Source of the DNA: a virus
IMG/VR virus record: IMGVR_UViG_3300050119_000104
Coordinates: 53,460 to 117,459 of that record
DNA: 64,000 nucleotides
Direction: 5' to 3' (one strand)
Position numbers and translations under genes: made by a program. Below, one piece after another: positions 7,580-64,000 of this stretch. Within the stretch, counting starts at the first letter, position 1. Each line of letters begins with the position of its first letter. The notes under the pieces were generated by a model. That model had not been told where the DNA came from, did not search any database, and saw nothing but the letters and a program-made list of their open reading frames with translations.

Positions 7580-8490
7580 GTATCATTTTCGCGCAGCAGG
7601 ACAGGACGGGCACCGTAGCTCAGATCACGGTCGCCGCCGCGCCCGCTAATCCAATTGCCGTCAATGACACCGGAACCATTGCAGGCGTGCAACCGTGGAA
7701 CGGCAACGAAGTGTCACTCGCGTTCACGGTCGGGCAAATCCTGAACACGGCGCAATTCGGTATCACGACCGCGCTTCCGAACGGCGCGGGTCCTGGCGAA
7801 GTGCTGCAAAGTGGATGGCCAGAAGCAGGCAGTGTAATCACGTGGATCACTGGCGCGAATGCCGAGACGACTTCCGCCGTGACGCAGATGGTTCCAGCCA
7901 ACGCCTACATCACGTCGAATTTCTTCAAGGAATATCACGCCTCACGCGGCAACGTGTACGGCACACCGACGACCGCGCAATTGCAGCAGGCAATAGTTCA
8001 AGGCACGGACTATCTCGATCAGTGGTATCGCTTCAAAGGCGTGAAGCTCCTGCAATTTCTTGGCGGCAACGATATCCTCGATCCGATGCTGCCATTTATT
8101 GATCCGTGGCTTAGCCCGTTCGGTTTCACTCAAACTGCATTCTATGTACCGAGCACTACGCAACAGGCAACGGAATGGCCTCGTCAGGGCGTGGTCGATT
8201 TCAATGGTGATAACGTATACGGAATTCCAAAAGCAATTTCATTCGGGTGCGCGGAGCTTGCGCTTCGCATGATCAATGGCATCATCCTCCAACCGGATTA
8301 CGATCCGACTGTCGTGTTAGCCGGAGCCATCATTGAGTCAGCTTCCCAGGAGGTCGGCCCAATCAAGGTGTCCGCGACTTATGATACCAAGCTCGGGATC
8401 GGATTTTTCGCGGACTTCCCGCACGTGAGTCGTTTATTGGCGAAGGCGGGACTCTTGATTGCTTCTGGCGGCCACCAGATTATTAGGTGA
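7576..8490 (+). CDS. Virion structural protein, hypothetical
   Basis: 304 residues, ATGA-coupled to the gene before. Seen: beta-rich N-terminal half (Ala/Val/Thr/Gly-rich), then an alpha/beta segment with QATEWPRQGVVDFNGDNVYGIP, a VLAGAIIESASQEVGPIKVS stretch resembling the head-tail connector family that pairs an Asn-Gly turn with a C-terminal helix, and a terminal LLAKAGLLIASGGHQIIR. Position after the capsid suggests a neck/connector component; unproven. Confidence 0.65.
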   Translation: MSIIFAQQDRTGTVAQITVAAAPANPIAVNDTGTIAGVQPWNGNEVSLAFTVGQILNTAQFGITTALPNGAGPGEVLQSGWPEAGSVITWITGANAETTSAVTQMVPANAYITSNFFKEYHASRGNVYGTPTTAQLQQAIVQGTDYLDQWYRFKGVKLLQFLGGNDILDPMLPFIDPWLSPFGFTQTAFYVPSTTQQATEWPRQGVVDFNGDNVYGIPKAISFGCAELALRMINGIILQPDYDPTVVLAGAIIESASQEVGPIKVSATYDTKLGIGFFADFPHVSRLLAKAGLLIASGGHQIIR

Positions 8491-8494
8491 TGGG

Positions 8495-8863
8495 ATGGCA
8501 GGAACCTTCAATTATCGAGCACTTGCGGCCGTCGCTGACAAGCTCATTCTGCAATTCGGCATGGCCGCATCGCTGCGCCCCGTCGGCGCAACGGATAGTT
8601 CGCAGGATCGTCCGTGCACAATTGTCATCACCGAGTATGATCCGCACGATGCTGCGACCCAACTCACGAACCCGACCGACCGCAAAATCCTCATTGCGCC
8701 GGGATTGGGCGCAGTTCCAGGCCAGCCGCCTGACAATGAAAAAGACCAGATAGTCGTTCTCATTGGCCCGGATGCAGGCCGGGTGCTCCCATTTACAAGT
8801 CCGGTCAAGCTTTACTCGCCCGCCGGGATTATAGTCCTTTATGAGTCAACGGTCCGTCGCTAA
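8495..8863 (+). CDS. Head-tail connector-type hypothetical protein
   Basis: 122 residues from ATG 8495, five bases after the upstream stop; an earlier in-frame start (8459) would overlap. Seen: N-terminal helix (YRALAAVADKLILQFG), then a beta-rich body with a KDQIVVLIGPDAGRVLPF strand pair. The size and helix-then-barrel layout match head-closure or stopper proteins of siphophages, but no sequence family is recognised. Confidence 0.6.
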   Translation: MAGTFNYRALAAVADKLILQFGMAASLRPVGATDSSQDRPCTIVITEYDPHDAATQLTNPTDRKILIAPGLGAVPGQPPDNEKDQIVVLIGPDAGRVLPFTSPVKLYSPAGIIVLYESTVRR

Positions 8864-8864
8864 A

Positions 8865-8908
8865 TTTACCCGGTTGCAGACGCCCCCGATCTATGGTTAA
8901 TGACAGCC
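8865..8908 (+). promoter_or_regulatory. Repeated intergenic motifs upstream of tail genes
   Basis: TTTACCCGGTTGCAGAC (8865-8881) matches 4809-4825 with one mismatch. ATGGTTAATGACAGCCTG (8893-8910) matches 20463-20480 with one mismatch. Both motifs occur only between structural genes. They could be promoters, RNA processing sites or remnants of mobile-element ends. Confidence 0.35.
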
Positions 8909-8924
8909 TGGAAGGCCCTGGAAT

Positions 8925-9443
8925 ATGACGCAGTTTGATCGACGGCAGGCGATTTTGGTGGAGCTTGGTTCAATGCTGGCGGCGCTCGTGCCGACCATCG
9001 TTTTGACCGGGACGCAAGGAACGCCAGCGGGGTTTGCTACCGGAGGCTACGTGCACAATCGCAACGAGCTTCCACAAGGTTTAGTCCCTGGCATCATTCT
9101 GTTAGATGCTGATGAGTTACCTGGGGGAACGCCGGTAATACCCGGCCGGGCGCAGACAAGGATCGCGCCGCAGATAATGAAGATGACGCCGGAAATTTAC
9201 GTCGTGTTGGACGTGCGAAAGCCGAACAACTTAAACGTGGGAGAGGATTTAGATTTAGCGCGGATCGCGATCCTTCAAGGAATTTGGACGGATCAGACCC
9301 TGCTGAATTTGGTTAGTTCGAATGGACGAATTGTTGTTGAAGCCTGCGTGACCGATCTCGCGCGCAACCGGACGATGCAAGGCCAATTGGGAATTTCAAT
9401 GTCGTTCTACTATCCACTGCTACCAAACGAGATCATCGGTTAA
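8925..9443 (+). CDS. Tail-completion/terminator-like protein
   Basis: 172 residues. Seen: N-terminal helix (DRRQAILVELGSMLAALV), a central MTPEIYVVLDVRK beta strand, a helix, and a C-terminal QLGISMSFYYPLLP strand. That order (helix, sheet, ...F.vpYr/fYyP end) is typical for siphophage tail terminator proteins encoded just before the tail tube gene, which is the case here. Assignment is by size, fold pattern and order, not by a recognised family. Confidence 0.55.
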   Translation: MTQFDRRQAILVELGSMLAALVPTIVLTGTQGTPAGFATGGYVHNRNELPQGLVPGIILLDADELPGGTPVIPGRAQTRIAPQIMKMTPEIYVVLDVRKPNNLNVGEDLDLARIAILQGIWTDQTLLNLVSSNGRIVVEACVTDLARNRTMQGQLGISMSFYYPLLPNEIIG

Positions 9444-9554
9444 ACGAGCGCGAAAATGCCGAAGCAAGTCGGTCGAGCAGATCATCCAATCGTATGCTTT
9501 ACTCATGCGATCCATAGTTTCACACCCGTGCTCGCTGCATAAAGGGAGGCTCCC

Positions 9555-10127
9555 ATGGCTGGATTTCTCGATATTGAGGGCAGTTTAACCTCCCCCAACA
9601 TAGGCAATTATTACATCGGCCGTGGCGTGGTCTCAATCAAAGTTCTCGGTGAGGAAGTATTCACTGATTGCGGCAACTGCCCGACGTTCGAATTCTTGGC
9701 GAAGGTAACGCAACTCGATCACTATTCGAGTCGTTCCGGTGTCCGCGTCAAGGATTTCGTCGCGACTACGCAAATCAGCGGCATGCTGACGATGGTCCTT
9801 GAGGAATTCACCGCGCGCAACATGGGTTTCGCTATGCTTGGGGTCACCCCGACCGTTGGCAGCGGTCCGTCGCCGTTGGAGGAAACCCTCGACATCTTCT
9901 CGACGCCCGTCCTGTACGCCGCCGTGCAATTCGTTGGCGACTCGCTCGTCGGCCCGGCATGGACGGTTGAATTCCCGCTCGTGCAACTGACCCCGAACAA
10001 GGCCATTTCGTTGATCGGCAATACCTGGGGCACGCTCGATCTACAGGGCGACGTTCTGTTCGACCAAGCCAGCGGCACTTTCGGCACTGCATTCGTCTCG
10101 CTGCCGAATAGCCCGGTCAAGGACTAA
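9555..10127 (+). CDS. Major tail tube protein
   Basis: 190 residues, strong ribosome binding site GGGAGG. Seen: NYYIGRGVVSIKVLGEE, then DCGNCPTFEFLAKVTQLDHYSSRSGVRVKD, matching the tail-tube pattern (GxGxxxF...lGNtpxfxlxpexexLdHyss..G.r.kd), and a C-terminal TPNKAISLIG...TLDLQGDVL strand set. Known: hexameric rings of this protein form the tail lumen around the tape measure. It is followed by hairpins, as expected for an abundant protein. Confidence 0.8.
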   Translation: MAGFLDIEGSLTSPNIGNYYIGRGVVSIKVLGEEVFTDCGNCPTFEFLAKVTQLDHYSSRSGVRVKDFVATTQISGMLTMVLEEFTARNMGFAMLGVTPTVGSGPSPLEETLDIFSTPVLYAAVQFVGDSLVGPAWTVEFPLVQLTPNKAISLIGNTWGTLDLQGDVLFDQASGTFGTAFVSLPNSPVKD

Positions 10128-10203
10128 ATACGCAAGCGCGTATATTTTGACTTTAAGCGCACTCGCGTATAAAAAGGTCGGCACCTGCGTGTAGGGTGCC
10201 GAC
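10128..10203 (+). terminator. Two hairpins after the tail tube gene
   Basis: A short hairpin ATACGC/GCGTAT (10128-10143) is followed by ATTTT, and a perfect 9-bp stem GTCGGCACC/GGTGCCGAC (10177-10185, 10195-10203) lies downstream. The first looks like a weak terminator; the second has no U tract and may be a transcript-stabilising structure. Confidence 0.55.
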
Positions 10204-10229
10204 ATCTGCACACCCCCCGGAGGCTCCCA

Positions 10230-10619
10230 ATGACAGATCAACCGCAACCGCGTCCCTTCCCCGTCAAAGACTCAGGCGTAAAGCCTTTCGATCCCGCTCG
10301 GGAACAAAATGTGGCTTTGGACGCCAGCGCAACAGGCGCCCCGTGGCCCTTCCCAGGAGCCCACACAGCCGATCCTGCGCCTGCCGCCCCACATACCCAG
10401 CCAACACCTGCGGCCGTCCCTGCGACGCCCGGTGCCCCGCCTGCGGTCAATTCCCCGGTGTCGGAGCCTGCGACTGCGCCGCTCCCGGCCGCCGTGCATG
10501 CCGCGCCCCCGAGCAAGACCTCGCAAGAGCGGCTACTCATCCAGCGGCAAACACAGAAACCCGCCGCGCTCGGGCCGAATTCGACAACGACCCCACCCTA
10601 CCCCGGCTACGGCCGATAA
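10230..10619 (+). CDS. Pro/Ala-rich hypothetical protein
   Basis: 129 residues with ribosome binding site GGAGG in a GGAGGCTCCCA context also seen before the tail tube gene. Seen: low-complexity Pro/Ala/Thr sequence throughout (residues 35-100), ending in a short basic tail and PPYPGYGR. Probably disordered. It lies between the tail tube and the tail-assembly chaperone, so a role in tail assembly is plausible; function unknown. Confidence 0.65.
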   Translation: MTDQPQPRPFPVKDSGVKPFDPAREQNVALDASATGAPWPFPGAHTADPAPAAPHTQPTPAAVPATPGAPPAVNSPVSEPATAPLPAAVHAAPPSKTSQERLLIQRQTQKPAALGPNSTTTPPYPGYGR

Positions 10620-15614: not shown

Positions 15615-15896
15615 ATGGGAAAAGATGCTTTAGGACACGGTTCCGATCCACGCGGCGGCGCACGTAGCGACGCCATCTCGCGCGGACTCAAGATTGATTT
15701 CCGGCGCTACCCGGGCGGCGGCGCGCAGGATCGCGCGACGACTGTAGCCAAGGGCTATCGCCCGGGACCAGGAGGGCGTCGAGACATGCCGGGCGCCCTA
15801 GGCGGCGCGCCGTCCGATCTATGGCGATCAAAACGATTTGCGACTCCGGCGGCGCATCAAGAGGGCGTTACCGCGCTTAAGGGAAAGAAGTTGTGA
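15615..15896 (+). CDS. Small protein with KDALGHGS N-terminal tag (3 of 3)
   Basis: 93 residues. Seen: MGKDALGHGSDPRGGARSDA, then a Gly/Arg-rich basic body (RPGPGGRRDMPGALGG) and a Lys-rich tail. Probably nucleic-acid or surface binding because of charge, but no family recognised. Its stop overlaps the next ATG (TGATG). Confidence 0.6.
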   Translation: MGKDALGHGSDPRGGARSDAISRGLKIDFRRYPGGGAQDRATTVAKGYRPGPGGRRDMPGALGGAPSDLWRSKRFATPAAHQEGVTALKGKKL

Positions 15897-16084
15897 TGTA
15901 CAACGCGCCCGACAATTTCATGGGCGGCCCGGACCAAGCTACAGCACGTAGTCAGGTCTCTAAATACGCTGCGATGAACCCAAAAGAGTTTGTGAGCGAG
16001 GTTCACGCCGGGATGAAGGCTGGAAAGTCGTACTCACACGACGTGATGAGAATGTTCTCGCAATACGCACGAGTAAGAAAATGA
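15896..16084 (+). CDS. Small hypothetical protein
   Basis: 62 residues from ATG 15896 (TGATG overlap); a GTG three bases upstream is possible. Seen: helical, YNAPDNFMGGPDQATARSQVSKYAAMNPKEF. ATGA-coupled to the large tail gene that follows. Function unknown. Confidence 0.55.
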   Translation: MYNAPDNFMGGPDQATARSQVSKYAAMNPKEFVSEVHAGMKAGKSYSHDVMRMFSQYARVRK

Positions 16085-18771
16085 CCGCGCTATTACCCTT
16101 CTTTTTTGCGTGGGTTGACTCGGATCAAAAGACGTTTGATCCGACCACGATGAACGTTATGGATGAGGCCATTTTCTCGATCAACCTCAAGCACGAGGAA
16201 GGTCAGGTCCCCGATCTTGAAATCGTAATCTTCAACCCGCGCGTCGGGCTACTCGCTCCCGGCCGCAAGCAATGGGCATGGCTGTCCTACCAGCCACCGG
16301 ATGCCGCGACAGTAACCGCGATCAATGCGAAGTTTGGTACAAGCTACACGTATCCGTGCATCCTTCCGATATTTTTTGGTGAGCTAGTTGGCATCCCCTC
16401 CGATCTATTTGCCGAGAAGATCACACTGAAACTCATCTCACGGTCGCGGAATTTTATCGAGGACAAGCAAGCCGTCGCCGAGACACTCAAAGTCGCTCCG
16501 AACTACGATCCGATTTTCCTGGATGAGACGCACCGGGACGAGCCTGATGCGATCCTCGAAGGCTGGTCATCGCTTTATCATACCGACCGCACAACACTCG
16601 CGACTTCCGCGTCCGATATCTTGACCGGAGAAGATGGCACGATTGTTTTCGAACAGGGAGATGCGTTCTATGACTCGGTTAAGATGACCGTCGGCGAGTC
16701 ACCTCTCACCAATATCCGAATAGAAGCCAGCGTAAATTGGACCCAGCGTAGCAGCGGCTACGTCGATGGCCCGAATGTGAATATCATAAGCTATACCGGC
16801 GACTCTTTCATGGGTGATTGGCCAAAGCCGGGCGCAGGTGTCGGCGGCGGGTGGCATGTTGAAACCAGTTTCGTGAATGACGTTTACAAAATTACGCAAA
16901 CTCCAACAGTGAATATCAGCGCGTCGTGGACTACTACTTCGACGCAGATGGAAGATTGCAGTGTCAATTCCACGCACAATTCGGCGTCGTTTCCGGCGCT
17001 CTTATCGCCGTCCCCGCTCTCTACCACTTTAACTTGGCATGAAGTTGTTGGCGATTGTAATCCTTTCAGTACGCCCCCCGTTAACAGGGGCGCGAGTATG
17101 GAGCTTACCGGCCTTACGGTTCCCTTATGGGCGCTGAACTGTACATGGACCTTGCGCTACGATGCGAAGCGCAGCTATTCGGAAATGTTGGTGATGGATG
17201 TCGCCGCCAACACCCAAGCCATTCTTACGTCACCCACCGTCGAACAGAATACCGAACTTATGAAAGTCAGCGGTACCGATGTGGGCCAGCCCCTCATCAT
17301 TTACGATGCATGGTCAGATTTCGCGAGTGCTCCCGTCGGGGTGACACAGCTAATCTTCCCGAACGATGCTACAACCCCCGGCGGTTTGTCATATCAGATT
17401 TGCGTGCAAGCAGGCACTGCGGGCGCGACTGAACCAGTTTTCAGCGACATTCCTGGCACGATCACCGATGACGGCACGGTGCAATGGGCGAGCTTAGGTG
17501 AGTCACCATTGAACGCTATCCAACAAATGACGTTCGCGACGCATTACGCGTCGGGCACTATTTTGCTCTATCAGGAGCAAATTTTCGATCCAAATACCGG
17601 CGGCCTTATCGATGTGCCCGGCGCTACCTCCTACTGGCTTTGCGTTGGAGCATGCTCGACGACCGATCAGTACACTGAGATGACCTACATTCCGCCGGTC
17701 ACCACTAGCGACGAGCCCACGCCCGCGCCGGTCACCGTTTATTTAGAGTGGTTCTCGCCCAGCGGTGCTAATATGGGCGGCAGCAGTTTGATCGGCGGAG
17801 GCATTGGCGGCGGTCAATTCTCTTCCGGCGGAGCCGGTGTTGCAGCCCTCGGTGGCTTCACTGACCTTGGGATTGCTCCGTCATTTCTCGGTATTCCCAT
17901 CGGCGGCACGGCGGATAACGTGACCGCCAACAACTTCTTTCCGAGTGATCGAGGACAACAGAGTATCCAATATCTTATTTGTAAAGCCCGTGCGCGGCTG
18001 CGGCTACGTTCTCGCGCTGTCAAAGTCATGTGGGATTGCCCATTCTATGCCGTGGCGGGCATGTCCTGCCGCATGAATGCGACACTGTTTGACCCACGCC
18101 TGCCCGGCGGCACAGCAACTGGTAAAATCACTTCCTACACGATGAGTGCAAGTGAAGGTAAAATGATTGGGCATATTGAAGCAGGATGCGCAGTTGGCTA
18201 CGGCGGCGTCGTCGAAGCAATCGTGGGGACGCCGGAATATGTAGCAGACAACACTTACGTTGGCACCGGAGTCTACCAAGTCTACGATGGTGCAACGACG
18301 GCAGTATTCCCCACAGATAGCAACGATATCAGCTACACTCCGCCGGGCTATGTACCCTATGACGATGGCTTGAGTTTCCCGCTCAGTTATTTGCCAGCGA
18401 ACGTTTCCATAAGTGGTTCAGCGAGTGCGCAAGCGACAGCTATCAAGGCCGCGTTCCCACTCGCGGCGCAGTTAGCACAGACTTCGGTGATCCTGAACCA
18501 GACCTACACTTCGACGGAGACCGGCATGGACGGGTCCACTACGACAACTACAAACAGCGGCGGTACCGCATCGGCAGATTGGTGGCTCGAACAATTGGAA
18601 TTCTATGACACCGCCCACTCGATCCCGTATATTATGGAGTCCAATCCGGTCTCAGCCGAGATTTTGATCCAGCCGGTGACCAATGGTCCATTCAACGCCG
18701 CGTACACCGTCACTGTCAGTCCACTCGAAATTCCTCTCGGAATTGATCTTGAAGCCCCCTCTAGTCCATAA
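16081..18771 (+). CDS. Large tail tip/hub protein
   Basis: 896 residues. Seen: N-terminal FFFAWVDSDQKTFDPTTMNV...FSINLKHEEGQVPDLEIVI, resembling the hub-domain start of phage tail-tip proteins, then IFFGELVGIPSDLFAEKITLKLISRS. The middle is beta-rich with Gly-rich loops (about 570-620), followed by a conserved-looking RARLRLRSRAVKVMWDCPF segment. Size and position after the tape measure suit a tail hub or baseplate component. No enzymatic motif noticed. Confidence 0.65.
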   Translation: MTALLPFFFAWVDSDQKTFDPTTMNVMDEAIFSINLKHEEGQVPDLEIVIFNPRVGLLAPGRKQWAWLSYQPPDAATVTAINAKFGTSYTYPCILPIFFGELVGIPSDLFAEKITLKLISRSRNFIEDKQAVAETLKVAPNYDPIFLDETHRDEPDAILEGWSSLYHTDRTTLATSASDILTGEDGTIVFEQGDAFYDSVKMTVGESPLTNIRIEASVNWTQRSSGYVDGPNVNIISYTGDSFMGDWPKPGAGVGGGWHVETSFVNDVYKITQTPTVNISASWTTTSTQMEDCSVNSTHNSASFPALLSPSPLSTTLTWHEVVGDCNPFSTPPVNRGASMELTGLTVPLWALNCTWTLRYDAKRSYSEMLVMDVAANTQAILTSPTVEQNTELMKVSGTDVGQPLIIYDAWSDFASAPVGVTQLIFPNDATTPGGLSYQICVQAGTAGATEPVFSDIPGTITDDGTVQWASLGESPLNAIQQMTFATHYASGTILLYQEQIFDPNTGGLIDVPGATSYWLCVGACSTTDQYTEMTYIPPVTTSDEPTPAPVTVYLEWFSPSGANMGGSSLIGGGIGGGQFSSGGAGVAALGGFTDLGIAPSFLGIPIGGTADNVTANNFFPSDRGQQSIQYLICKARARLRLRSRAVKVMWDCPFYAVAGMSCRMNATLFDPRLPGGTATGKITSYTMSASEGKMIGHIEAGCAVGYGGVVEAIVGTPEYVADNTYVGTGVYQVYDGATTAVFPTDSNDISYTPPGYVPYDDGLSFPLSYLPANVSISGSASAQATAIKAAFPLAAQLAQTSVILNQTYTSTETGMDGSTTTTTNSGGTASADWWLEQLEFYDTAHSIPYIMESNPVSAEILIQPVTNGPFNAAYTVTVSPLEIPLGIDLEAPSSP

Positions 18772-39215: not shown

Positions 39216-39812
39216 TTATTCGACCGGCGGCTGCTTCCGCTTGCGAGGCCATCCTGGTTCAAAGACAAACTTGTCGGAGACGGGCTTGTTTTCCCGCTTC
39301 GCCGCTTCGCCGACCGCAGTGTAGGGTGGGACGGCATTCGGCATGCGCGCGGTGATCTCTTTGATTTTCTCGTTCATGTCCTCCTGCCATCCGCTCGGTA
39401 GCGGCGGCGGTCGGTCATCCACGAAATTTTTCATGAACATCGCGTCGCGGAGTACCACGAGAGAAGCGAGAGCTTTACCGATGTGGCTGATACCTGAAGC
39501 TGGGTCGATATCCTCGCCCTCGAACCACGCGGTCAGATGGCGCATGGTCGCGTCATAATAGACGCTCGCGCGCACGCCAATGACTCGATAGTTATGCCGT
39601 CCATATTTGCGGGCACCTTCAAACATGCCAACTCCGATCTCGGCAATGACGGCGGATGATACCGTCGAGAACGGCACTTTGAGAATGCCGAGCACGTCTT
39701 TCGGATTGGAAGGTTTCGCAGTTGGATTGTTGGCAACGATTTCCGTATTGAGTACGTCATCGGGATTCGTGCTTATCCGGTTGACACCCACAACCTCTTT
39801 ATCTTGGGTCAT
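39216..39812 (-). CDS. dATP/dGTP diphosphohydrolase-like (DUF5664), N-terminus supplied by mobile element
   Basis: 198 residues as read from ATG 39812. Residues 1-15 (MTQDKEVVGVNRIST) come from the end of the tnpB element; the native start was displaced or lost. Seen: NPTAKPSNPKDVLGILKVPFSTVSSAVIAEIGVGMFEGARKYG and the NYRVIGVRASVYYDATMRHLTAWFEGEDIDPASG motif of DUF5664. A Pro-rich linker and a basic WPRKRKQP tail follow. Known: relatives hydrolyse dGTP/dATP to monophosphates and occur in 2-aminoadenine (Z) genome phages. The start overlaps the tnpB stop (ATGA), so expression may now depend on tnpB translation. Confidence 0.75.
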   Translation of the reverse strand: MTQDKEVVGVNRISTNPDDVLNTEIVANNPTAKPSNPKDVLGILKVPFSTVSSAVIAEIGVGMFEGARKYGRHNYRVIGVRASVYYDATMRHLTAWFEGEDIDPASGISHIGKALASLVVLRDAMFMKNFVDDRPPPLPSGWQEDMNEKIKEITARMPNAVPPYTAVGEAAKRENKPVSDKFVFEPGWPRKRKQPPVE

Positions 39813-40905
39813 GCGGCCCTCCGGCTTTCGTCTCCACGACGCTGAGCACTCAGCGCGAGAATGTTCCGTGCGGCATTTGTGTCACGGTCATGGACCGCTC
39901 CGCATCCGCCGCACATCCATTCCCTTATTCCAAGCTCTGCGATACCTTTAGGGCCACAACGCGCACCGCACGTTGAACAGAGTTGGGAAGTCCATCGCTC
40001 ATCGGCCTCAATGTACGTCGCCCCGTGCCTGCTGGCCTTGTAGCGGAGCGCCGACCGGAACGAGGACCAAGAGGCGTCGAGCACGGATTTAGCCATCCGT
40101 GTTCGGGCCATCTGCGCCGCGTTCACATTGCCGACGACGATCAGGCGATTGTCCGCAGCGATGCGGGCCGTCGCCTTATGGATGTGATCTTTCCGGGCAT
40201 TCGCGATCTTGGCATGAATAGCCTTGGTGCGCTTGCGGTTACCGGCGCGCTGCGCCGTGGCAAGTGCCCGTTCGTATTGGCGGTAGTGGCGGAGCGCGGG
40301 GACCGAAGTGCCATCGCTGCACGCCGCAAGGGTTTTCAGCCCCAAATCAATGCCGATTTCGCCGTTGCCTATAGGCAAATCGGCAACATCGACGTGGAAG
40401 CACACGTACCAGCGTCCGCGTGCATCCTCGACGAACGCTCCACCTTTTGCGGTTGGCGGTAATGGCCGTCGCGCTTGCCAGAAATGGTAGACCTTGCCGA
40501 GATAGGTGATCGTGTTGGCTGATACCTGACGGCTCTGACCCTGAAACGGTATCCAGCCCAAAGCGCGCGATCCGCGCCAGCGCAATGAGCGCTTTGCCTT
40601 GTCGCGACTCCGCGCATACTGCTCGCACACCGAGCCGACCGTCTGCGCATGAATGCCCAAGTCCTTCGACGTGCCTTTGGTCATCCGTTGTAGGTCGAAA
40701 TGCGACGGCCATTTGCGCTTCGGCGACCCATCGCGGTAGCGCGCCTCGATGTCATGCTGTACCTCGTTGCAGTAATTCCAGACGACGTTGCACGCTTTCG
40801 CATGCCGCCGAAGGGTCTTTTTGGCGGAGCGGTCCTTGATGCGATAGCGGTAAGTCAAGATCATCTGGGTTTAGTACCTGTGGGTGTCAACCGGATAAGC
40901 ATGAA
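39768..40905 (-). mobile_element. TnpB element with terminal inverted repeats, copy 1
   Basis: 1138 bp. Ends are inverted repeats of about 24 bp: CGTGCTTATCCGGTTGACAC at 39768 and its complement ending ...CCGGATAAGCATG at 40905. Only tnpB lies inside. Flanking octamers differ (TCGGGATT and AACTCAAT), so no target duplication survives here. The copy at 62885 appears identical. The ends match those of the 241-bp units at 42355 and 48559. Confidence 0.88.
39809..40864 (-). CDS. tnpB: TnpB nuclease with altered RuvC-II site, copy 1
   Basis: 351 residues. Seen: RuvC-I Asp in EIGIDLGLKTLAACSDG (D173), zinc ribbon CSTCG...CGGCG, RuvC-III Asp in HDRDTNAARNIL (D328). The usual RuvC-II Glu is replaced: RLIVVGNVNAAQM has Gly245 where E is expected. 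A Glu in YIEADERWTSQ (E289) may compensate, as in the subgroup of TnpB with a rearranged RuvC-II site. The start overlaps the stop of an upstream truncated frame (ATGA), and the stop overlaps the start of the downstream gene (ATGA). Confidence 0.92.
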   Translation of the reverse strand: MILTYRYRIKDRSAKKTLRRHAKACNVVWNYCNEVQHDIEARYRDGSPKRKWPSHFDLQRMTKGTSKDLGIHAQTVGSVCEQYARSRDKAKRSLRWRGSRALGWIPFQGQSRQVSANTITYLGKVYHFWQARRPLPPTAKGGAFVEDARGRWYVCFHVDVADLPIGNGEIGIDLGLKTLAACSDGTSVPALRHYRQYERALATAQRAGNRKRTKAIHAKIANARKDHIHKATARIAADNRLIVVGNVNAAQMARTRMAKSVLDASWSSFRSALRYKASRHGATYIEADERWTSQLCSTCGARCGPKGIAELGIREWMCGGCGAVHDRDTNAARNILALSAQRRGDESRRAA

Positions 40906-40965
40906 CTCAATGAGCTTTTTGATCGGCTTGCGCCGGTGAAGCTCGCTAAGATTAGTCTTTGTCAT
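40861..40965 (-). pseudogene. Gene fragment cut by the TnpB element
   Basis: From ATG 40965 the frame reads MTKTNLSELHRRKPIKKLIEF and then enters the element's inverted repeat (MLIRLTPTGTKPR), stopping with TGA overlapping the tnpB ATG. The native continuation is missing. It could be the original 5' end of the gene at 39216 (separated by the insertion) or a separate gene lost by an adjacent deletion. Confidence 0.5.
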
Positions 40966-42278: not shown

Positions 42279-42354
42279 GGGTTTTTCTCCGCCCTCTACA
42301 TGGCACGGCTCGGGGGAGCCAGCCAGCGGAACCTTGGAAGGAGGTTAAGAGACC

Positions 42355-42595
42355 CATGCTTATCCGGTTGACGCCCAATGCTTGACAGCTACCTGGAATT
42401 TTGCTTTTCTCCGTTCCGACAATCGCCTCCGATTGATTGGGGGTATCTAAAGACCATGTTTCCGTCGTCTGTTCGCGCCGAAAGGTAGAACGGCGATGAA
42501 TAAGGTCCATTTCGGTGGATCGCGCAGAGTGCTCTGCGTCCTGTAGAGGAGAGCCGGGTTCGTGTCGCCCATTGGGCGTCAACCGGATAAGCACG
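42355..42595 (+). mobile_element. 241-bp non-coding TIR element (MITE-like), copy 1
   Basis: Bounded by inverted repeats (CATGCTTATCCGGTTGACGC at the left, ...CCGGATAAGCACG at the right) and flanked by a perfect 8-bp direct repeat AAGAGACC (42347-42354, 42596-42603). Contains no protein gene. Near the right end it carries the palindrome CGCAGAGTGCTCTGCG, related to one at the tnpB 3' end. About 98% identical to the copy at 48559, which is in the opposite orientation. Confidence 0.92.
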
Positions 42596-42615
42596 AAGAG
42601 ACCGTAAAGGGCTCG

Positions 42616-48522: not shown

Positions 48523-48558
48523 GGCTTATTCTCCTGGCCACTTCATTACTTTATGTTT

Positions 48559-48799
48559 CGTGCTTATCCGGTTGACGCCCAATGGGCGACACGAACCCGG
48601 CTCTCCTCTACAGGACGCAGAGCACTCTGCGCGATCCACCGAAATGGACCTTATTCATCGCCGTTCTACCTTTCGGCGCGAACAGACGACGGAAACATGG
48701 TCTTTAGATACCCCCAATCAATCGGAGGCGATTGTCGGAATGGAGAAAAGCAAAATTCCAGGTGGCTGTCAAGCATTGGGCATCAACCGGATAAGCATG
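48559..48799 (-). mobile_element. 241-bp non-coding TIR element (MITE-like), copy 2
   Basis: Same length as copy 1, opposite orientation, a few substitutions. Ends CGTGCTTATCCGGTTGACGC (48559) and ...CCGGATAAGCATG (48799). Perfect 8-bp target duplication TTATGTTT (48551-48558, 48800-48807). It contains the palindrome CGCAGAGCACTCTGCG near the 48559 end. It interrupts the last codons of the gene at 48769. Confidence 0.93.
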
Positions 48800-48978
48800 T
48801 TATGTTTGAGAAAATCACCAATTCGAGCGGCGACTGTGCAGTTGGCTTTATCAATGCCGTATGTGGTGCAATGTTCGCCACCGCCGCAATTTCCGACCTT
48901 TCGACCTATAATGATAATCTGATCATAGCCGTATTTCTCAGCTACTGCTTTTGCCGCACTGATTGGGATTGGTCTCAT
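48769..48978 (-). CDS. Conserved small phage protein, C-terminus replaced by element
   Basis: 69 residues from ATG 48978 with GGAGAGTGAG upstream (a GTG lies 12 bases earlier). Seen: ISAAKAVAEKYGYDQIIIIGRKVGNCGGGEHCTTYGIDKANCTVAARIGDFLKHN, a pattern I recall from many phages, then MLIRLMPNA from the element. Removing the element and one 8-bp repeat restores ...DFLKHKVMKWPGE and a stop, the expected family ending. The insertion is therefore recent and only swaps the last few residues. Confidence 0.75.
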   Translation of the reverse strand: MRPIPISAAKAVAEKYGYDQIIIIGRKVGNCGGGEHCTTYGIDKANCTVAARIGDFLKHNMLIRLMPNA

Positions 48979-57982: not shown

Positions 57983-58067
57983 CGTGCTTATCCGGCTGAC
58001 GCCCAATGGACGACACGAACGGAAGAAAAGCAAAATTTCAGGTAGCTGTCAAGGTAGGTGTCAACCG
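57983..58067 (-). repeat. Decayed copy of the 241-bp element
   Basis: Left 38 bp (CGTGCTTATCCGGCTGACGC...) match the 48559 end. The sequence then jumps to the part near the opposite end (GAAAAGCAAAATTTCAGGTAG), an internal deletion of about 150 bp. The far inverted repeat is degenerate (GTGTCAACCG then unrelated sequence). No target duplication found. It supplies the last codons of the gene at 58038. Confidence 0.75.
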
Positions 58068-62410: not shown

Positions 62411-62433
62411 GTTGCTATCTCCTGTCCGAGAAC

Positions 62434-62508
62434 CGCGCAGAGTGCTCTGCGTCCTGTAAAGGAGAGCCGGGTTCGTGTCGCCCATTGGGCGTCAACCGGA
62501 TAAGCACG
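62434..62508 (+). repeat. Solo right end of the 241-bp element
   Basis: 75 bp matching the last part of the element: palindrome GCGCAGAGTGCTCTGCG, then ...CATTGGGCGTCAACCGGATAAGCACG. The left two thirds are missing and no target duplication is seen. It lies between two early genes, five bases from the stop of the HIRAN gene. Confidence 0.85.
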
Positions 62509-62884: not shown

Positions 62885-64000
62885 CGTGCTTATCCGGTTG
62901 ACACCCACAACCTCTTTATCTTGGGTCATGCGGCCCTCCGGCTTTCGTCTCCACGACGCTGAGCACTCAGCGCGAGAATGTTCCGTGCGGCATTTGTGTC
63001 ACGGTCATGGACCGCTCCGCATCCGCCGCACATCCATTCCCTTATTCCAAGCTCTGCGATACCTTTAGGGCCACAACGCGCACCGCACGTTGAACAGAGT
63101 TGGGAAGTCCATCGCTCATCGGCCTCAATGTACGTCGCCCCGTGCCTGCTGGCCTTGTAGCGGAGCGCCGACCGGAACGAGGACCAAGAGGCGTCGAGCA
63201 CGGATTTAGCCATCCGTGTTCGGGCCATCTGCGCCGCGTTCACATTGCCGACGACGATCAGGCGATTGTCCGCAGCGATGCGGGCCGTCGCCTTATGGAT
63301 GTGATCTTTCCGGGCATTCGCGATCTTGGCATGAATAGCCTTGGTGCGCTTGCGGTTACCGGCGCGCTGCGCCGTGGCAAGTGCCCGTTCGTATTGGCGG
63401 TAGTGGCGGAGCGCGGGGACCGAAGTGCCATCGCTGCACGCCGCAAGGGTTTTCAGCCCCAAATCAATGCCGATTTCGCCGTTGCCTATAGGCAAATCGG
63501 CAACATCGACGTGGAAGCACACGTACCAGCGTCCGCGTGCATCCTCGACGAACGCTCCACCTTTTGCGGTTGGCGGTAATGGCCGTCGCGCTTGCCAGAA
63601 ATGGTAGACCTTGCCGAGATAGGTGATCGTGTTGGCTGATACCTGACGGCTCTGACCCTGAAACGGTATCCAGCCCAAAGCGCGCGATCCGCGCCAGCGC
63701 AATGAGCGCTTTGCCTTGTCGCGACTCCGCGCATACTGCTCGCACACCGAGCCGACCGTCTGCGCATGAATGCCCAAGTCCTTCGACGTGCCTTTGGTCA
63801 TCCGTTGTAGGTCGAAATGCGACGGCCATTTGCGCTTCGGCGACCCATCGCGGTAGCGCGCCTCGATGTCATGCTGTACCTCGTTGCAGTAATTCCAGAC
63901 GACGTTGCACGCTTTCGCATGCCGCCGAAGGGTCTTTTTGGCGGAGCGGTCCTTGATGCGATAGCGGTAAGTCAAGATCATCTGGGTTTAGTACCTGTGG
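62885..64000 (-). mobile_element. TnpB element with terminal inverted repeats, copy 2 (cut by window end)
   Basis: Starts CGTGCTTATCCGGTTGACAC at 62885. All 1116 visible bases appear identical to 39768-40883, so about 22 bp remain outside. The flank before it is GAAAGTGT; a matching octamer just beyond the window would prove a target duplication. Downstream of tnpB an element-opened frame (62837-62929, 30 residues) couples to the HIRAN gene. Confidence 0.88.
62926..63981 (-). CDS. tnpB: TnpB nuclease with altered RuvC-II site, copy 2
   Basis: 351 residues, same protein as at 39809, including Gly in place of the RuvC-II Glu (VVGNVNA). Apparent 100% DNA identity between the copies, 23 kb apart, indicates very recent transposition or gene convers­ion. 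The stop overlaps an ATG (ATGA) as in copy 1. Confidence 0.92.
   Translation of the reverse strand: MILTYRYRIKDRSAKKTLRRHAKACNVVWNYCNEVQHDIEARYRDGSPKRKWPSHFDLQRMTKGTSKDLGIHAQTVGSVCEQYARSRDKAKRSLRWRGSRALGWIPFQGQSRQVSANTITYLGKVYHFWQARRPLPPTAKGGAFVEDARGRWYVCFHVDVADLPIGNGEIGIDLGLKTLAACSDGTSVPALRHYRQYERALATAQRAGNRKRTKAIHAKIANARKDHIHKATARIAADNRLIVVGNVNAAQMARTRMAKSVLDASWSSFRSALRYKASRHGATYIEADERWTSQLCSTCGARCGPKGIAELGIREWMCGGCGAVHDRDTNAARNILALSAQRRGDESRRAA

What the first reader, a model, noticed from the sequence alone, without database searches (positions are those of the whole stretch)
39768..40905. TnpB nuclease carried on an element with DDE-style inverted repeats
The tnpB units at 39768-40905 and 62885-64000 end in the same inverted repeats as the 241-bp units (LE begins CATG, RE begins CGTG in all complete copies). 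Established: TnpB normally travels with HUH or serine transposases, without such long inverted repeats or 8-bp duplications. Inference: a TnpB/guide-RNA cassette has been captured by a TIR transposon, and the pair forms an autonomous-like/non-autonomous family without its transposase.
Basis: partly seen in the sequence, partly recalled or inferred. Interest (0 to 1): 0.88.

Follow-up and report, generated by a model that had tools for sequence, protein, structure and literature searches.

The report
Phage TnpB riding on IS1595 ends
A phage genome carries an RNA-guided DNA-cutting enzyme (TnpB) inside a cut-and-paste type transposon frame of the IS1595 family, whose end also appears to form the tail of the enzyme's guide RNA, and a dozen small elements in the same genome carry that guide RNA alone; such a pairing was known, as far as I could find, only from eukaryotic relatives of TnpB (Fanzors).

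Summary
The tnpB element (39768-40903) is bounded by 25-bp inverted repeats, 24/25 identical to each other and sharing their outer part with the 241-bp units. The copy at 62885 cannot be checked at its right end, because the virus record stops at 64000.

The repeats belong to IS1595. An IS1595 transposase element with the same ends and an 8-bp duplication lies in the same record, outside the window. Among 27 phage relatives of this transposase, 20 have perfect 8-bp duplications; none carries tnpB inside the element.

The tnpB belongs to a phage clade derived from IS605-type TnpBs. A covarying omega-RNA structure at its 3' end terminates in CCGGATARGCACG, the outer end of the repeat. A model built from other phages finds the same RNA in 12 further places of this record, including the 241-bp units (E about 1e-18 to 1e-21).

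Best reading: IS1595 ends move the cassette; flank-derived guides let TnpB cut the emptied site. The end reads CACG, not IS1595's CATG, perhaps to avoid a self-target motif.

Against: most TnpB copies, this one included, lack the duplication; the motif is inferred post hoc; nothing is shown experimentally.

The parts
39768..40903 (-). tnpB element, copy 1 (IS1595-type ends; 1136 bp)
   Evidence: inverted repeats at both ends; no 8-bp duplication in this copy
39809..40864 (-). tnpB, 351 aa, RuvC triad D173-E289-D328 with the glutamate in the alternative position before the zinc finger
   Evidence: AlphaFold model pLDDT 85.6 matches TnpB structures
39768..39865 (-). omega-RNA 3' part: three helices, ending exactly at the element end (..CCGGATAAGCACG)
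   Evidence: covariance model R1 built without this record, 74.6 bits, E 1e-21
39768..39792 (-). right-end inverted repeat (RE); outer 13 bp = 3' strand of terminal omega-RNA stem plus tail
40879..40903 (-). left-end inverted repeat (LE), CATG end
39748..39767 (-). predicted guide of copy 1 (AATCCCGATGACGTACTCAA), the flank directly beyond RE
   Evidence: position after the omega-RNA tail, inference; unique in the record
62885..64000 (-). tnpB element, copy 2, cut by the end of the record
   Evidence: 100% identical to copy 1 over 1116 bp
62926..63981 (-). tnpB of copy 2, 351 aa
62885..62982 (-). omega-RNA of copy 2
42355..42595 (+). 241-bp omega-RNA-only element; omega-RNA 42513-42595; 8-bp duplication AAGAGACC (42347-42354, 42596-42603)
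48559..48799 (-). 241-bp omega-RNA-only element; omega-RNA 48559-48641; 8-bp duplication TTATGTTT (48551-48558, 48800-48807)
62426..62508 (+). omega-RNA of a truncated 241-bp-type unit (only the CACG end kept)
57983..58063 (-). decayed remnant of a 241-bp-type unit (only the CGTG end clear; interior largely lost)
   Evidence: not found by R1

Best explanation
This is a non-autonomous transposon of phages: an IS605-derived TnpB with the alternative RuvC glutamate, framed by IS1595-family inverted repeats and moved in trans by an IS1595 transposase (one is in the same phage). On capture, the outer 13 bp of one repeat (CCGGATARGC plus the terminal bases) replaced the old 3' end of the omega-RNA, so the same bases serve as transposase end and as terminal stem plus tail of the guide RNA. 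The omega-RNA reads out of the element into the flank, which becomes the guide. When the transposase removes a copy, the emptied site (motif + 8-bp target + flank) matches the guide and TnpB cuts it, so that repair from another copy puts the element back. The CATG to CACG change at the guide end removes the motif next to the inserted copy and so prevents self-cutting. The 241-bp units are omega-RNA-only elements that borrow both transposase and TnpB and bring their own guides. Shown by sequence: frame, transposase pairing, RNA structure, RNA in the small units, CACG/CATG contrast. Inferred: mobilisation in trans, target motif, cutting, self-avoidance.
For: Same ends plus 8-bp duplication on an IS1595 transposase element in the record and perfect duplications in 20 of 27 phage IS1595 loci (of 22 where both ends could be paired). 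At least nine further phage tnpB loci with both repeats, one with a perfect 8-bp duplication. Tree: all TnpBs with the GGATARGCACG tail form one clade (97/91) with the framed ones scattered inside it; IS605-type relatives end ..GTTAA. Bacterial IS1595 elements have the core TATCCsgTTGAC without tnpB, so the core is the transposon's. RNA structure: 99.5% of cells paired versus 76.7% in shuffles, 38 double changes versus 13.5, slid controls 28-44%. Model R1, built without this record, finds 3 tnpB copies and 12 omega-only places in it, each ending on the CACG end, and none at E below 0.01 in the IS1595-type control elements. Omega ends are all CACG here; control ends are CATG in 79 of 90. [A/C]T at -11/-10 before LE in 19 of 20 omega elements versus 27 of 90 control flanks; related IS605-type TnpBs follow TCAT or TTAT.
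Against: Copy 1 and 9 of 10 framed tnpB elements lack the 8-bp duplication that 41 of 50 control elements keep. An IS1595 transposase was found in only one of the framed-tnpB records, this one (most records are fragments). The motif was chosen after looking, IS1595 itself prefers T at -10 (54%), with the most cautious control the T alone is not significant (p 0.07), and its register is one base off that of the sister TnpBs. The C in CACG could be needed by the RNA itself. No expression or cleavage data.
Confidence: 0.68

Rival explanations
1. Former passenger, now spread mainly by recombination: a single old capture into an IS1595 frame left the repeat sequence inside the omega-RNA, but present tnpB copies are passed on by homologous recombination or TnpB-driven homing between phages, not by transposition; the repeats survive because the RNA needs one of them.
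For: 9 of 10 framed tnpB copies lack the target duplication; no IS1595 transposase in the other framed-tnpB records; many clade members kept the RNA tail but lost LE.
Against: LE, which has no known RNA role, is kept nearly perfect in several lineages and matches RE; copies 1 and 2 here are 100% identical at different sites; L238 has a perfect duplication; 241-bp units with duplications are plentiful.
Confidence: 0.2
2. The 241-bp units are plain MITEs that happen to keep the tnpB 3' end; no guide RNA is made or used from them.
For: They could be internal-deletion derivatives of a tnpB element; no consensus promoter found by the simple scan.
Against: The RNA helices are intact in all copies and end on the CACG end, while MITEs of the same IS1595 type in other phages have no such RNA; a TTGACA box is invariant in all ten copies aligned, including divergent ones.
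Confidence: 0.12
3. The HUH transposase of the separate IS605 element in the same phage mobilises the framed tnpB.
For: A full IS605-type tnpA/tnpB pair lies in the record (L033 10181-11740), and most framed tnpB copies lack duplications, as IS605 insertions do.
Against: The framed elements have long inverted repeats instead of the IS605 end hairpin and ..GTTAA end; the conserved bases before LE are separated from it by about 8 variable positions.
Confidence: 0.03

Closest known systems
Fanzor1 and Fanzor2* (TnpB relatives in eukaryotic inverted-repeat DNA transposons; PMC3627910, PMC10711439)
   Same: RNA-guided nuclease of the TnpB family carried, often without transposase, in a DDE transposon frame with target duplications; inverted repeat forms part of the guide-RNA scaffold; RuvC glutamate in the alternative position; also found in viruses (Spodoptera frugiperda ascovirus, two non-autonomous copies).
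   Different: Here a bacterial virus, IS1595 family, TnpB with DLG not DPG motif and derived from IS605-type TnpBs, not the IS607/pro-Fanzor line; the data favour a guide starting at the duplication, not after it; omega-RNA-only satellites in high number.
IS200/IS605 elements with TnpA and TnpB (ISDra2; PMC8612924)
   Same: The nearest TnpB relatives; RNA from the tnpB 3' end and RE, guide from the flank, cut-and-restore model.
   Different: No TnpA in the element, long inverted repeats, 8-bp duplication geometry, different RNA tail.
IS1595 family insertion sequences and their MITEs
   Same: Ends, 8-bp duplication, DDE transposase (PF12762, PF12760) on partner elements.
   Different: No TnpB or guide RNA in the IS1595 elements seen here; guide end reads CACG instead of CATG.
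TldR, nuclease-dead TnpB-like regulators of phages (PMC13418256)
   Same: Phage-borne TnpB-family protein.
   Different: RuvC residues D173, E289, D328 are invariant in 27 aligned relatives, so a nuclease is expected.

Membership tests
TnpB RNA-guided nuclease | RuvC D-E-D triad and C4 zinc finger | tested here: met
   D173, E289 (alternative position, six residues before CxxC as in PMC10711439), D328, C296/C299/C318/C321 invariant in 27 sequences; canonical glutamate position is G245
TnpB RNA-guided nuclease | structured RNA overlapping the tnpB 3' end and running to RE | tested here: met
   three covarying helices, found in this locus by a model built without it
TnpB RNA-guided nuclease | RNA-guided, motif-dependent DNA cleavage | not testable with these tools
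   needs biochemistry
IS1595-mobilised element | ends shared with an IS1595 transposase element | tested here: met
   record 8172-10421 and phage IS1595 loci
IS1595-mobilised element | 8-bp target duplication | tested here: not met
   absent at copy 1; present in the 241-bp units and in L238; present in 1 of 10 framed tnpB elements
IS1595-mobilised element | transposase encoded in the element itself (autonomous) | tested here: not met
   only tnpB between the repeats; no tnpB inside the IS1595 elements
IS200/IS605 element | HUH TnpA and hairpin ends, no long inverted repeats | tested here: not met
   no tnpA in the 1136-bp element; 25-bp inverted repeats
IS607 element | serine recombinase beside tnpB in the element | tested here: not met
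   the element holds only tnpB; the rest of the record was not searched for serine recombinases
Fanzor1/2* | DPG motif in RuvC-I, eukaryotic or eukaryotic-virus host | tested here: not met
   DLG at 173-175; tailed-phage genes in the window
Fanzor1/2* | inverted repeat is part of the guide-RNA scaffold | tested here: met
   terminal helix pairs GCCGG with CCGG of RE; comparison with PMC10711439
TldR | RuvC catalytic residues lost | tested here: not met
   triad present

The most novel reading that the evidence does not exclude
A prokaryotic TnpB lineage rebuilt its guide RNA around the terminal repeat of a DDE transposon: the IS1595 end is at once transposase site, omega-RNA terminal stem and tail, and (through CATG to CACG) a disabled self-target motif; a swarm of omega-RNA-only elements with private guides then uses one TnpB and one transposase in trans inside a single phage genome.
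Probability: 0.55. Interest if true: 0.85.

Novelty: new variant of a known kind. Interest (0 to 1): 0.74.

Why it matters
Known bacterial TnpBs travel with HUH or serine transposases; capture by DDE transposons was reported for eukaryotic Fanzors and was discussed as tied to IS607-type TnpBs (PMC10711439). A phage lineage that did the same from an IS605-type ancestor would show that the step is not special to eukaryotes, and it gives a natural set of before-and-after sequences for how a guide RNA boundary is rewritten when the transposase changes. It makes direct tests possible in a laboratory bacterium: which bases the transposase needs, which the RNA needs, and whether CACG versus CATG decides self-cutting. 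Omega-RNA-only elements in such number in one phage would also be a simple natural multi-guide system. I found no earlier report in the open-access library searched; subscription papers were not searchable.

Tried and rejected
(1) TldR-like dead nuclease, suggested by the missing canonical glutamate (VVGNVN): rejected, the alternative glutamate is invariant. (2) The tail resembling the repeat by chance, or the repeat having come from the tail: judged unlikely, bacterial IS1595 elements without tnpB share the repeat core, and relatives with other tails lie outside the clade. (3) Autonomous element with both transposase and tnpB: none among 27 phage IS1595 loci. (4) Empty site of copy 1 from relatives of the interrupted gene: 14 loci found, but their N-terminal parts are too variable to show the pre-insertion sequence. 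(5) Other targets of the 15 predicted guides in this record: no convincing one, each matches its own flank. (6) Rfam: no match for the RNA. (7) Isolated phages: no near relative of TnpB (best 44%), of the 241-bp unit, or of the transposase. (8) Motif as a pure effect of IS1595 target choice: weakened but not excluded. (9) Exact 18-bp repeat pattern in 399 genomes of one bacterial phylum: none. (10) Scan for more 241-bp units in viral contigs: only the two already known contigs, so no out-of-sample test of the motif.

Full report
What is there. The window is positions 53460-117459 of a 117,459-bp virus record with phage genes (tail fibre, tape measure, helicase, exonucleases). At 39768-40903 lies a 1136-bp element that holds one gene, tnpB (39809-40864, minus strand), between 25-bp inverted repeats that differ in one base. 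A third, diverged tnpB element lies at record 15708-16846, its left end hit by a 235-bp unit.

The ends are IS1595 ends. The same outer repeat, CATGCTTATCCGGTT, bounds a 2250-bp element at record 8172-10421 with the perfect 8-bp duplication ATCGGGAT; its 347-aa protein has the IS1595 DDE domain and zinc ribbon (Pfam E 1e-34 and 1e-11). A scan of viral contigs with the 14-base core gave a large family of elements of 200 to 2700 bp with 8-bp duplications, 41 of 50 unbiased pairs having at least 7 of 8 bases. Of 27 phage loci encoding close relatives of the transposase, 20 show perfect duplications; none has tnpB inside the element. Bacterial IS1595 elements have related ends with the core TATCCsgTTGAC. 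So the transposase is not missing from this phage; it lies outside the window.

The tnpB and its relatives. The protein belongs to a group of phage TnpBs whose RuvC glutamate sits in the alternative place (IEADE followed by six residues and the first zinc-finger cysteine), as described for Fanzors and some TnpBs (PMC10711439); D173, E289 and D328 are invariant in 27 sequences. The predicted fold matches solved TnpB structures. At least nine more phage loci at about 57-96% identity have the repeats on both sides. In the tree all phage TnpBs whose downstream sequence ends GGATARGCACG (or a close variant) form one supported clade (97/91), in which framed and unframed members are mixed; neighbouring groups end in ..GTTAA, and at least one of these carries a divergent HUH tnpA: the complete IS605-type element in this very record (L033 10181-11740). 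I read this as one capture into an IS1595 frame at the base of the clade, followed by several losses of the left repeat; repeated gains of the left repeat are not excluded.

The guide RNA. Aligning the 3' ends of 16 phage loci (this record left out) shows three helices: a hairpin with an AGYGYY loop, a three-pair hairpin, and a terminal helix in which GCCGG pairs with CCGG of the outer repeat. 99.5% of cells are paired against 76.7% in shuffles; 38 cells carry changes on both sides against 13.5; sliding the partners drops pairing to 28-44%. The support for the terminal helix is weaker than for the other two: two of its four pairs never vary. The RNA therefore ends ..CCGGATARGCACG at the element end, and the flank follows as guide, by analogy with ISDra2 (PMC8612924). 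A covariance model of this set, searched over the record, finds the three tnpB copies and twelve further places with E from about 1e-17 to 1e-21: the 235-256-bp units and their fragments, every one ending on the CACG (in one case TACG-type or decayed copies aside) end. The same model finds nothing at E below 0.01 in the IS1595-type elements of other phages taken as control, but does find omega-only units in two contigs of near relatives. Ten such units share an invariant TTGACA box inside the left end, though a simple promoter scan found no full match.

Target motif and self-avoidance. In the orientation of the RNA, the left flank of 20 omega-bearing insertions has T at -10 in 20 of 20 and A or C at -11 in 19 of 20, just outside the 8-bp target. 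IS1595 itself favours T at -10 (54%) and A/G at -11, so the contrast is 19 of 20 against 27 of 90 for [A/C]T (p 6e-8; against the better of the two control flanks p 4e-4). T alone against the better flank is not significant (p 0.07). The motif was picked after inspection, and units in one record are not independent. It fits relatives in bacteria, whose elements follow TCAT or TTAT, although the register differs by one base. The normal IS1595 end CATG would present the same motif next to the guide match; omega ends read CACG in this record and in the framed copies elsewhere, against CATG in 79 of 90 control ends. That the change prevents self-cutting is inference; a need of the RNA for this C is an alternative.

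How it most likely works. Transposase from the IS1595 element acts on all elements with its ends. After excision the empty site is motif + 8-bp target + flank; TnpB with the guide from that flank cuts it, and repair from another genome copy restores the element. The small units supply their own guides. The steps from excision on are inferred from the IS605 model and were not tested.

What does not fit. Copy 1 has no duplication, nor have nine of ten framed tnpB elements, whereas five of nine complete omega-only units and most control elements do. Recombination between copies, or repair after TnpB cutting, may have exchanged flanks; I could not reconstruct the empty site. A transposase was seen in only one of the framed-tnpB records.

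Comparison. The nearest known case is Fanzor1 and Fanzor2* in eukaryotic inverted-repeat transposons, where inverted repeats and duplications are part of the RNA scaffold (PMC10711439; PMC3627910). This works like that, but is not a member: the motif is DLG, the host is bacterial, the ancestor IS605-type. It fails the definition of an IS605 element (no HUH transposase, no IS605 ends) and, for this copy, one mark of an IS1595 insertion (duplication). I rate it a new variant of a known kind.

Noticed in passing
L031 7386-7742 (record coordinates, outside the window): TIGR-like array: two alternating short repeats (GGTACTCTC and GGCTCGCTC) with 9-10-nt variable spacers, period 36, about 9 copies, matching the description of TIGR arrays in PMC12045711.
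   Followed up: partly
L031 7801-8193(-) and 10386-10988(-): The IS1595 transposase element (8172-10421) sits between these two ORFs and seems to split one gene beside the array; the N-terminal part resembles an IS110-C-terminal/Nop-type protein (PDB 9mty, E 4e-4) and TasH (E 6e-3), so it may have broken a tas gene.
   Followed up: partly
L033 10181-11740 (record about 46.2-47.7 kb): A complete IS605-type element with HUH tnpA (136 aa) and divergent tnpB (367 aa), RNA end GACGTTAA; identical over 7 kb in contig 3300037140_000055.
   Followed up: partly
L031 15472-15706 and 15708-16846: A 235-bp omega-RNA unit is inserted, with duplication GAAGGCTT, into the left end of the third tnpB element.
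   Followed up: yes
window 39216-40960: tnpB copy 1 lies at the 5' part of a DUF5664-like gene; its predicted guide is coding sequence of that gene. The name DUF5664 is from memory, not tested.
   Followed up: partly
L040-L157 (IMG/VR contigs): Phage contigs hold a large, diverse family of short IS1595-type elements (200-900 bp) with CATG ends and 8-bp duplications but no omega-RNA; target preference about RTNGWWYRWWCNAY.
   Followed up: partly
L031 9445-10361 (inside the 2250-bp IS1595 element): Two passenger ORFs (124 and 181 aa) without Pfam match travel with the transposase.
   Followed up: no
L031 11303-11812: An ORF with a run of about 40 histidines from a CAC-type repeat, probably not a gene.
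   Followed up: no
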